DNA of 64,000 nucleotides from Mageeibacillus sp. (GTDB taxonomy: Bacteria > Bacillota > Clostridia > Saccharofermentanales > Saccharofermentanaceae). The notes under the pieces were generated by a model. It saw only the letters and a list, made by a program, of their open reading frames with translations, was not told the DNA's origin and did not search any database. The stretch lies in contig JAKVLB010000008.1 of the NCBI GenBank assembly GCA_022484595.1, positions 1-64,000 on the forward strand, in the 5' to 3' direction. How positions within the stretch are numbered: position 1 is the stretch's first letter; every line of letters begins with the position of its first letter. Both the position numbers and the translations under genes were made by a program. This document shows, in pieces, positions 57,744 to 60,839 of this stretch.

Positions 57744-60700
57744 TTACTTTCTCTTCATCTTGTCTGTATACATTGCAGCGTCAGCTTCGCTTATCATTTT
57801 ATCGATATCAAGGTCATTGTCTATAACCCTTTCCGATATTCCGATACTTGCTTTTACGCTGAACGGTTTGCCTGCAATAGCCCGGTCGTTGCTGCAGAAA
57901 TCTTCAATCTCATAACGTATATCGGAAACACCGGATGCAAGTTTGCGATCGCCTGTCAGAACAAAGGCAAACTCATCTCCGCCATAGCGTGCCGCAACTC
58001 CGTTGTTCTCGACAATATTCATTATCGCGCGTGAGAGAATCTGTATAGCTATGTCGCCGTTATCATGCCCGTAATTGTCATTAATACGCTTAAGTCTGTC
58101 CATATCGACAGAAAACAATGATAATATCCGGCCCTGATTATCTTCTTTTGAGCATATCTCGCTGATGGCGTTGAAGAAACCCCTTCTGTTATACAGACCT
58201 GTAAGATAATCCTGTTCGGACAGTCTTGCAACCGCTCTGTTTGTGTTGACCAGTTTGTGGTTATTAAGCACTCCGTTTACCATCGCACTTACAAACAGGC
58301 TCAGTTCCTCAAATCGCTGCTGCGACCGTAAAGTAATATGGTCATAAGCATTTAGCAGATATCCGTGGTCTGCCGAACCGGATGCTATCTGTCTGAAGAG
58401 CATCACATTGGCACCGCTGTCTTTCTCGACAAGTCTGAAATAATCAGGAACGATGTTTGCCATCCCGTAGAACTTCTGCGCATACCTGTATTCTCCGTCA
58501 TTTCCCTGGAATATACAGTGCCTGCAATTGTTCGGTTCAGTTATACATATGAAATAATACTGTTTCTTCCACATCCAGAGAGAGTGCTGAAGATTTACCG
58601 AAGCTTCGTCTATATTGTCAGCGCTGATCATCCTTGTAACAAAATGTCCCATCTCAAGCATGTGACGGAATGAATCCTGATTTTCATCAGCAAGCTCATC
58701 AACAATATCAGACCACTCAAAATCTTCTTTTTTCCTGCATGAGCATGATTGGTTTATTTTTAGAGAATACGGTATCAGGAAAGAATCTGTTTTTCCGGAC
58801 AATTCTGGTCTCCATCCGTTAATGCGCACCATAAGTCCCTCAACGATTTTGTCATAATTGAGTTCACATGTCGTAAGCACAGGAGAGTTATATTTGCCCT
58901 GCCAGATACCATCGAAACCTGTGACAATCACATCGTCAGGAACAGATATCCCGTATTTCCGCAAAGTATCGCAGACTCCTATCGCCATTGAATCATTTGC
59001 GCAGATTATAGCTTCAGGAACCTCATAACCATTATCAAGAAGCTCGCTTAATACTTCAGATGTCTTGGCATCCCAGAAATCACCGTAGAAGATGTGAGCC
59101 TGACTGAAAGGTATTCCGTTATCCTCAAGAACTCTCCTGAAAATATCAATTCGCTCCTCGGAGAAACTGTTGTCCTTGAATCCGGCAAACATATCAATCT
59201 TACGGCATCCATGATGTTCAACAACATGCCGGACTATTTTCTCAAAGCCTGGACCATATTCATAATCCGCATTGATACAGCCTTCCATAGGATACTGGAA
59301 TGTAATCACCGGAATTCTGAGCTTGTGGCCATAACTTACAAGTCTCTCTATTACCTGTCCGGTTTTAATCATCTCGCCGAAAATAACAATCGCCGCCAGA
59401 TCAAGCGTTCCGACAATATCGGCAAATTTGAGCTGCAGCTCTGTCTCTCCATAATCCTGTGACGGTATTCCAAACGTAAAACTTGCAATCACGTATTTTG
59501 ACAGCACATCTTTAGTCTGCATCGCTCTCAGCACAACACTGTAATTATCGGCATCTTCCCATACTCCGCATACTGCAATCAGTTTTCTTGAATTTCCGTA
59601 CACTTTGACCTTACGAATAGAGATATTACGGAAGTAGACACCTCCGAAGTTGCCCGGTTTCATGATTATCTCCGCCACAGCATCAACCTTAGTATCAGAC
59701 TTTACTTCAAACTCAAATCTATGTGTCTGCCATTCCTTCTCGATATTAAAAGTAATCTGACCTGAAATATCATCAAAGCTATCGTTGTCCTGTCTTACAG
59801 ATGCTGAGACTTCCCACTCGCAGTCAGCCTTCACTTCAGCCGAAAACTCATATAATGAACTGCCTTCAAGGCTGAATCCGTTCTGAGTCATATTGATGCC
59901 GGACCTGTTGATCTGATATTCAGAAGGTACAATGCAGATATCATTATCTGAAATAAGCACCTCGGAACAGTCATAAGAATCGTTAACCCTGAAATAGTCA
60001 TTTGAACGAAGAAGATTAGCTGAGGCATCAGAAGTACCTTGCGCGTTATCATTCAGATGTTCTGCCCTGAAGTCATCATATTCTGGTTTACGATATAGCC
60101 TGACATAGTCAACAATCATGCAGTCATATTTCCCGTCACTGTCACCGGAAGCGTTGAATCTGCAACCGGTAATATCTCTTCCCATATCAAGACCAATGGA
60201 GATATTGAACGGCTTATCGAACGGAGCGGGATAAGGCTTAAAAACAGAGCCGGTTTTCGAGAACCATGAACATGCATGACATATTCTCTCTCCGTCACAA
60301 TAGATTGTAATGTCATATGGAGTCCATTCACAGGCGAAAACGTGGAAATCATCAGAATAATCAACGTCGCCTGTAAGAATTTCTCTCTTCTGTGTGTGTG
60401 GGTGTCCAAATTGCACGGAGCCTTCGAGCTTGCGCGTGTTACAGCCGGTTATTCGCATAATGTCTATCTCGCCATTGTCACAGGTCAATCTGTCACCGGC
60501 AGGCAAAAGCTTAAAAGAGCTTACAAGTCCCTGTCCTCTCGGAACTTTGATTCTTGCCACGACAAAACCGTATCGGAAATCAAATTTGCCGATTGTGTCC
60601 AGATTAGCAGATATGCAGGCATGTGAATTCTTCTTGCGCGAAAAATAACTCGGGGAAATAGTAAGACAACTTTCACCGACTTCAAGACATGACCTGCCGC

Positions 60701-60839
60701 AATGATCTTCAGGCACACTGTCACCCGCACCGGATGCGAATGATCCGGCATTCCAATAGCTGCTGTTAATCTCATGACCGTCAAATTCTTCAGCCCAGAA
60801 CAACTTATAGCCTTCAGGCAGTACAACGTTATCCAACAT
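57744..60839 (-). CDS. GH16-like domain - CBM-like domain - LacI-type sensor - GGDEF diguanylate cyclase fusion
   Basis: GH16 EEFDG, RYGFVVARIKVPRGQGL, GEIDIMRITG; beta-sandwich region; ANDSMAIGVCDTLRKYGISVPDDVIVTGFDG; ARYGGDEFAFVL. Confidence 0.87.
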   Translation of the reverse strand: MLDNVVLPEGYKLFWAEEFDGHEINSSYWNAGSFASGAGDSVPEDHCGRSCLEVGESCLTISPSYFSRKKNSHACISANLDTIGKFDFRYGFVVARIKVPRGQGLVSSFKLLPAGDRLTCDNGEIDIMRITGCNTRKLEGSVQFGHPHTQKREILTGDVDYSDDFHVFACEWTPYDITIYCDGERICHACSWFSKTGSVFKPYPAPFDKPFNISIGLDMGRDITGCRFNASGDSDGKYDCMIVDYVRLYRKPEYDDFRAEHLNDNAQGTSDASANLLRSNDYFRVNDSYDCSEVLISDNDICIVPSEYQINRSGINMTQNGFSLEGSSLYEFSAEVKADCEWEVSASVRQDNDSFDDISGQITFNIEKEWQTHRFEFEVKSDTKVDAVAEIIMKPGNFGGVYFRNISIRKVKVYGNSRKLIAVCGVWEDADNYSVVLRAMQTKDVLSKYVIASFTFGIPSQDYGETELQLKFADIVGTLDLAAIVIFGEMIKTGQVIERLVSYGHKLRIPVITFQYPMEGCINADYEYGPGFEKIVRHVVEHHGCRKIDMFAGFKDNSFSEERIDIFRRVLEDNGIPFSQAHIFYGDFWDAKTSEVLSELLDNGYEVPEAIICANDSMAIGVCDTLRKYGISVPDDVIVTGFDGIWQGKYNSPVLTTCELNYDKIVEGLMVRINGWRPELSGKTDSFLIPYSLKINQSCSCRKKEDFEWSDIVDELADENQDSFRHMLEMGHFVTRMISADNIDEASVNLQHSLWMWKKQYYFICITEPNNCRHCIFQGNDGEYRYAQKFYGMANIVPDYFRLVEKDSGANVMLFRQIASGSADHGYLLNAYDHITLRSQQRFEELSLFVSAMVNGVLNNHKLVNTNRAVARLSEQDYLTGLYNRRGFFNAISEICSKEDNQGRILSLFSVDMDRLKRINDNYGHDNGDIAIQILSRAIMNIVENNGVAARYGGDEFAFVLTGDRKLASGVSDIRYEIEDFCSNDRAIAGKPFSVKASIGISERVIDNDLDIDKMISEADAAMYTDKMKRK

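What the first reader, a model, noticed from the sequence alone, without database searches (positions are those of the whole stretch)
57744..60839. GH16-CBM-LacI-sensor-GGDEF fusion with an apparently dead GH16 domain
Seen: one uninterrupted 1031-codon ORF with no signal peptide joins a GH16-like fold (EEFDG...GQGL...GEIDIM), a beta-sandwich CBM-like stretch, a LacI/PBP1-type sensor without HTH and an intact GGDEF. The GH16 signature normally reads E-[ILV]-D-x-x-E (nucleophile and acid/base). Here it is E-I-D-I-M-R, with an Arg codon (CGA, plus strand 60453-60455) in the acid/base position, and the aromatic WPAFW subsite is VSSFK. Established: loss of the acid/base Glu should abolish retaining glycosidase activity. 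Inference: the domain has become a carbohydrate-recognition module that, with the LacI-type domain, controls c-di-GMP synthesis in the cytosol, i.e. a glycan-gated diguanylate cyclase.
Basis: partly seen in the sequence, partly recalled or inferred. Interest (0 to 1): 0.9.

Follow-up and report, generated by a model that had tools for sequence, protein, structure and literature searches.

The report
Diguanylate cyclase carrying dead glucanase domain
In one genus of gut-type clostridia, an intracellular enzyme predicted to make the bacterial second messenger c-di-GMP carries a captured glucan-cutting enzyme whose cutting site has been broken again and again in evolution while the fold was kept, which suggests an enzyme turned into a sensor or switch.

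Summary
The N-terminus models as laminarinase-type GH16; the motif is GEIDIM-R and WPAFW is VSSFK. It is no assembly fusion: 77 protein clusters carry GH16-LacI-GGDEF, 57 of them with the CBM-like stretch.

The family changes the meaning. It was found only in the window's genus. Acid/base Arg is unique to this protein; the usual loss is the nucleophile (63 of 77 clusters, at least six independent losses). Twelve clusters keep both glutamates. Dead GH16 domains of the largest clade are under strong purifying selection (dN/dS mostly 0.04-0.09), and their former active-site strands are the better conserved part. Some relatives keep only a CBM-like region; others carry barstar instead. A second LacI-GGDEF gene follows downstream in 37 of 63 family loci.

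In the window protein GH16 is the fastest-evolving of 40 compared and has lost the cleft aromatics, so glucan recognition there is doubtful. Best reading: a catalytically dead, retuned ligand or interaction module gating a cytosolic diguanylate cyclase; ligand unknown.

The parts
57744..60839 (-). Fused diguanylate cyclase, 1031 aa (TTG one codon upstream at 60842 gives 1032)
60084..60815 (-). GH16 laminarinase-type domain, residues about 9-252, catalytically dead
   Evidence: Pfam PF00722 5.8e-15; PDB laminarinases up to 2.2e-20; AF2 plus Foldseek 3azx, 8va4, 2vy0
60453..60455 (-). R129 (CGA) at the acid/base position
   Evidence: alignment
60468..60470 (-). E124, retained nucleophile position (lost in 63 of 77 family clusters)
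60510..60512 (-). K110 in place of the second Trp of WPAFW (R or K in 57 of 77 family clusters)
59607..60032 (-). CBM4/9-like beta-sandwich, residues about 270-411
   Evidence: PF02018 0.007 only, below cut-off; modelled beta-strands at about 82-94 pLDDT from residue 311 on; aligns with secreted GH16-CBM enzymes over residues 9-411
58740..59591 (-). LacI/periplasmic-binding-protein type sensor without HTH, residues about 417-700
   Evidence: PF13377 8.5e-17
58230..58727 (-). GAF-like domain, residues about 705-870
   Evidence: AF2 mean pLDDT 83.8; Foldseek GAF and phytochrome matches, weak, best E 8.6e-4
57753..58226 (-). GGDEF domain with RYGGDEF intact, no RxxD inhibitory site (ENNG)
   Evidence: PF00990 7.4e-31; sequence
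55337..57652 (-). Partner gene: second LacI-type sensor plus GGDEF, 771 aa, directly downstream
   Evidence: Pfam; conserved downstream on the same strand in 37 of 63 family loci
60930..61799 (-). Upstream gene of unknown family (ORF-caller start probably too early; homologues about 217 aa), same strand, conserved next to the fusion
   Evidence: synteny cluster c2 in 13 loci; no Pfam match
61607..61627 (-). Terminator-like hairpin with T-tract after sepF; suggests that the upstream gene, the fusion and the partner form one unit
   Evidence: pattern only; the number of such patterns in the region is at chance level

Best explanation
It is a cytosolic diguanylate cyclase whose N-terminus is a captured secreted GH16-CBM beta-glucanase that lost its signal peptide and its hydrolytic residues. 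Shown by sequence: the domain architecture, loss of the catalytic pair, repeated independent loss in the family, strong selection on the dead domain in the largest clade, and restriction to one genus in the genomes searched. Inferred: the GH16-CBM module is now a ligand-binding or interaction module that acts, with the LacI-type pocket, through the GAF-like domain and helical linker on GGDEF dimerisation, so that c-di-GMP is made in response to an intracellular sugar or related compound. The cleft was probably retuned away from neutral beta-glucan, because the aromatic platform is lost and Arg or Lys stands in place of a subsite Trp in most members. The downstream LacI-GGDEF protein probably works in the same pathway.
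For: Fold. Family of 77 clusters, 65 with a broken catalytic pair. At least 6 independent nucleophile losses assuming no reversion (bootstrap range 5-9), plus the window's separate acid/base loss. dN/dS of dead GH16 mostly 0.04-0.09 in close pairs of the Q clade, like the LacI domain. Former active-site strands have lower entropy than the GH16 average in the Q clade (0.45-0.57 against 0.85), with clade-fixed changes there: A108Y, W110R, L121, H122, E124Q. R or K at 110 in 57 of 77. PDB holds GH16 nucleophile mutants solved with oligosaccharide (LamA E269S, SCLam E144S, PtLam E154A), so loss of that Glu need not abolish binding. The genome has 7 EAL matches and a GH94 phosphorylase homologue, so c-di-GMP turnover and intracellular beta-glucan oligosaccharides are plausible.
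Against: No ligand or activity is known. In the window protein the GH16 domain is the fastest of 40 compared (GH16/core distance ratio 2.28 against 0.98-1.69) and retains only 60% of positions invariant in ten active or secreted enzymes, which also fits relaxed constraint. Its own dN/dS cannot be measured because no close orthologue was found. Barstar in place of GH16 on the same core would fit a protein-interaction role equally well. Gene context at the window locus is not glucan-related.
Confidence: 0.5

Rival explanations
1. The GH16-CBM part no longer binds any glycan. It is a structural or protein-interaction module (for instance for dimerisation or for docking to the partner cyclase or the cell envelope) and is drifting in the window lineage.
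For: Barstar, a protein-binding fold, or a CBM-like region alone stands in place of GH16 on the same core. The window GH16 and CBM have diverged far more than the core (36% and 25% identity against about 60%; ratio 2.28). Cleft aromatics are lost. The paired downstream cyclase offers a partner.
Against: In the Q clade the former active-site strands are more conserved than the rest of GH16 and carry clade-fixed substitutions, which points to a retained pocket rather than only a scaffold.
Confidence: 0.33
2. Some members, those with both Glu, are active intracellular beta-glucanases that process imported oligosaccharides; dead members are simply relaxed copies.
For: 12 of 77 clusters keep EIDxxE; L036 also keeps FLPAFW and TIHYG.
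Against: 65 of 77 lack the pair, yet purifying selection on GH16 stays strong in the Q clade. This cannot apply to the window protein.
Confidence: 0.1
3. The LacI and GAF domains alone control the cyclase; the window GH16-CBM is a neutral passenger on its way out, as in the relatives that lost GH16.
For: CBM-only and core-only relatives exist (L037-L039; P0119-P0121). The window GH16 is the most accelerated.
Against: The frame is open over the 417 N-terminal codons with a good fold model, and the domain is retained and constrained in the sister clade.
Confidence: 0.05
4. Assembly or annotation artefact joining separate genes.
For: None found.
Against: GH16-LacI-GGDEF frames in 77 protein clusters from many contigs, one on a 406-kb contig of the named record Ruminococcaceae bacterium YRB3002; conserved synteny.
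Confidence: 0.01

Closest known systems
GH16 laminarinases / beta-1,3(4)-glucanases (Thermotoga maritima 3azx, CapGH16_3 8va4, Pyrococcus 2vy0)
   Same: Fold and end-to-end sequence alignment; nearest relatives of the fused domains are secreted GH16 proteins of the same genus
   Different: No signal peptide, acid/base Glu replaced by Arg, subsite Trps lost, fused to a cyclase
Insect beta-glucan recognition proteins (betaGRP/GNBP)
   Same: GH16 homologues that lack the catalytic Glu and serve as receptors (PMC6403176)
   Different: Extracellular animal immune proteins; here a predicted bacterial cytosolic second-messenger enzyme with many independent losses
RsgI anti-sigma factors of Clostridium thermocellum
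   Same: A glycosidase domain (GH10) or CBM used as a polysaccharide sensor in a signalling protein (PMC12203970)
   Different: Transmembrane, extracellular sensor, sigma-factor output; here cytosolic with c-di-GMP output
GH126-GGDEF protein of Bacillus velezensis
   Same: A glycosidase domain and a GGDEF-type domain in one chain (PMC7479077)
   Different: Single protein, other GH family, degenerate GGDEF (SAERF), no LacI or GAF domain reported
Periplas_BP (LacI-type) sensor c-di-GMP enzymes
   Same: LacI-type domain plus GGDEF; listed as a putative solute or sugar sensor without experimental validation (PMC8846402)
   Different: Additional N-terminal GH16-CBM module

Membership tests
GH16 fold | beta-jelly-roll laminarinase fold | tested here: met
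   Foldseek 3azx_A E 1.8e-17, TM by target 0.76; Pfam over cut-off
Active GH16 glycosidase | E-x-D-x-(x)-E nucleophile and acid/base pair | tested here: not met
   GEIDIM-R
Active GH16 glycosidase | Secretion signal, as in the genus's secreted enzymes | tested here: not met
   Hydropathy of the N-terminus; secreted paralogue L002 has a lipoprotein-type signal
CBM4/9 | Pfam CBM_4_9 above cut-off | tested here: inconclusive
   17.1 bits against 25.9 in the window; some relatives carry it in precomputed annotation
LacI-type sensor domain | Peripla_BP_3 domain | tested here: met
   62.2 bits against a cut-off of 26.5
LacI transcription factor | N-terminal HTH | tested here: not met
   No HTH match
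GAF domain | GAF fold | tested here: inconclusive
   Weak Foldseek, TM by query mostly 0.4-0.5, probability about 1.0; no Pfam match
Diguanylate cyclase | GGDEF motif and metal/guanine residues | tested here: met
   RYGGDEF and VDMDRLKRIND present
Diguanylate cyclase | c-di-GMP synthesis | not testable with these tools
   Needs an assay
Glycan sensor | Ligand binding changes cyclase activity | not testable with these tools
   Needs ITC or thermal shift and a cyclase assay

The most novel reading that the evidence does not exclude
A genus-specific family of cytosolic diguanylate cyclases in which a captured secreted glucanase has been converted at least six times into a non-catalytic receptor with a retuned, probably basic cleft, leaving a natural series: intact enzyme-cyclase, dead enzyme-cyclase, CBM-like region only, barstar swap.
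Probability: 0.4. Interest if true: 0.8.

Novelty: new variant of a known kind. Interest (0 to 1): 0.64.

Why it matters
Sugar sensing by LacI-type c-di-GMP enzymes is assumed but not validated (PMC8846402), and enzyme-to-receptor conversion is usually known as one or few events per lineage. Here one genus offers related proteins with intact, singly broken, doubly broken, deleted and swapped versions of the same N-terminal module on one signalling core. This makes the order of events, and the role of a dead enzyme, directly testable.

Tried and rejected
Assembly fusion: rejected. E-to-R as a family trait: rejected, 1 of 77. Wider distribution: none outside the genus among 103 further genomes of the order or in a draw of 400 from the phylum; these searches used E cut-offs of 1e-60 and 1e-80, so remote versions could be missed. 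Scanning named genomes with an alignment failed; with P0025 it returned only Saccharofermentans sp. Horse_feces250. dN/dS for the window GH16 itself was impossible for lack of close orthologues. Literature searches found no GH16-cyclase fusion and nothing that looked like a barstar-GGDEF protein (titles and abstracts only). The window CBM domain could not be confirmed by profile alone. The co-occurrence test with the 771-aa partner (Fisher p 0.00025) ignores relatedness and is not relied on.

Full report
Observation. The ORF runs from ATG 60839 to a stop at 57744, minus strand, 1031 aa. There is no signal peptide or TM segment. The N-terminal model (mean pLDDT 81.4) matches GH16 laminarinases (3azx E 1.8e-17, TM by target 0.76). 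Against ten active or secreted GH16 proteins the window keeps 60% of invariant positions; it has lost W38, W110, W119, the acid/base E129 and H143 among others, but keeps E124 and D126.

Family. A search of 5.8 billion proteins found further clusters; 77 in all carry GH16-LacI-GGDEF as analysed, 57 with and 20 without the CBM-like stretch (by length). Named sources are Saccharofermentans sp., Clostridiales bacterium and Ruminococcaceae bacterium YRB3002 (the last without CBM). In whole genomes the core family occurs in 55 of 87 genomes of the window's genus, about 49 of them with GH16 (my count from the lengths and match ranges), and in none of 103 further genomes of the order, nor elsewhere in a draw of 400 from the phylum. 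It is therefore real, recurrent and, as far as searched, genus-specific.

Catalytic residues. Of 77 clusters 12 keep both Glu. The nucleophile is lost in 63 (Q 36, S 14, R 6, D 4, T, A and C one each), and Arg at the acid/base position occurs only in the window protein. On the GH16 tree, assuming loss is not reversed, the nucleophile was lost at least 6 times (bootstrap range 5-9). The window's loss is a further, separate event because its nucleophile is kept. The eight secreted GH16 proteins sampled from the genus have GEIDIME, but they were picked with a filter that required a similar motif, so this is a comparison set, not a census. The fused GH16 domains group with the secreted L067/L070 type (99/95 support).

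Selection. Within the Q clade (nucleophile E to Q) close pairs give dN/dS of about 0.04-0.09 for GH16, similar to the LacI domain (some dS values are saturated). In 31 Q-clade sequences the former active-site strands have lower entropy than the GH16 average (0.45-0.57 against 0.85) and carry clade-fixed changes. This argues for a retained pocket, although such strands are also core strands of the fold. The window protein differs: its GH16/core distance ratio is 2.28, the highest of 40 (others 0.98-1.69), with 36% GH16 identity to the Q clade against about 60% for the core. Its cleft may be relaxed or may have a new role; the data do not decide.

Modularity. On the core tree, relatives with a CBM-like region but no GH16 (L037-L039) are sister to a clade with doubly broken GH16 (98 support), and a barstar domain (PF01337, 1.4e-15 in L040) stands in place of GH16 in L040-L044 (L041-L044 judged by sequence). 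A swappable N-terminus fits a sensing or docking module.

Context. At the window locus the order yggS, sepF, an unnamed gene, the fusion, and a 771-aa LacI-GGDEF gene is shared with most Q-clade loci and largely with L056/L058. In 37 of 63 family loci the 771-type gene lies within 10 kb, always downstream on the same strand, 26 of them within 250 bp. In some other lineages a secreted protein with GH5-like sequence lies nearby (L036, L057, L059, L064, judged by sequence only). The genome has 7 EAL matches and a GH94 phosphorylase homologue, so c-di-GMP turnover and intracellular oligoglucans are plausible.

Comparison. GH16-derived receptors are known in insects (betaGRP/GNBP, PMC6403176), glycosidase-domain sensors in RsgI (PMC12203970), and one GH126-GGDEF chain (PMC7479077). 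LacI-type sensors on c-di-GMP enzymes are listed as unvalidated (PMC8846402). I found no description of a GH16-CBM-LacI-GGDEF protein in the papers searchable here. I rate it a new variant of a known kind.

Verdict. Dead GH16 on an intact cyclase: about 0.95 by sequence. Ligand-binding or gating role in the family: about 0.5. Glucan binding by the window protein itself: lower.

Noticed in passing
L040:6932-9097 (+); L041-L044: The same LacI-GAF-GGDEF core carries an N-terminal barstar-like domain (PF01337, 1.4e-15 in L040): a predicted barstar-diguanylate cyclase fusion.
   Followed up: partly
L036:5812-8469 (-): Relative with a canonical GH16 motif (FLPAFW, GEIDIME, TIHYG) fused to LacI-GGDEF without a signal peptide: possibly an active intracellular glucanase-cyclase.
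   Followed up: partly
window 58730-58760 and all relatives: Nearly invariant SCxC motif just after the LacI-type domain, also in the neighbouring LacI-GGDEF protein; role unknown.
   Followed up: no
window 60084-60839: C51 and C181 are shared by the window and the Q clade and are absent from the secreted enzymes compared; whether they pair is unknown.
   Followed up: no
L057, L059, L064, L036: A secreted protein resembling GH5 cellulase (NVGWNLGNTLDSYG) lies between or beside the fusion and the 771-type cyclase.
   Followed up: partly
P0031: 1262-aa LacI-type GGDEF-EAL protein with a long C-terminal repeat region of unknown role.
   Followed up: no
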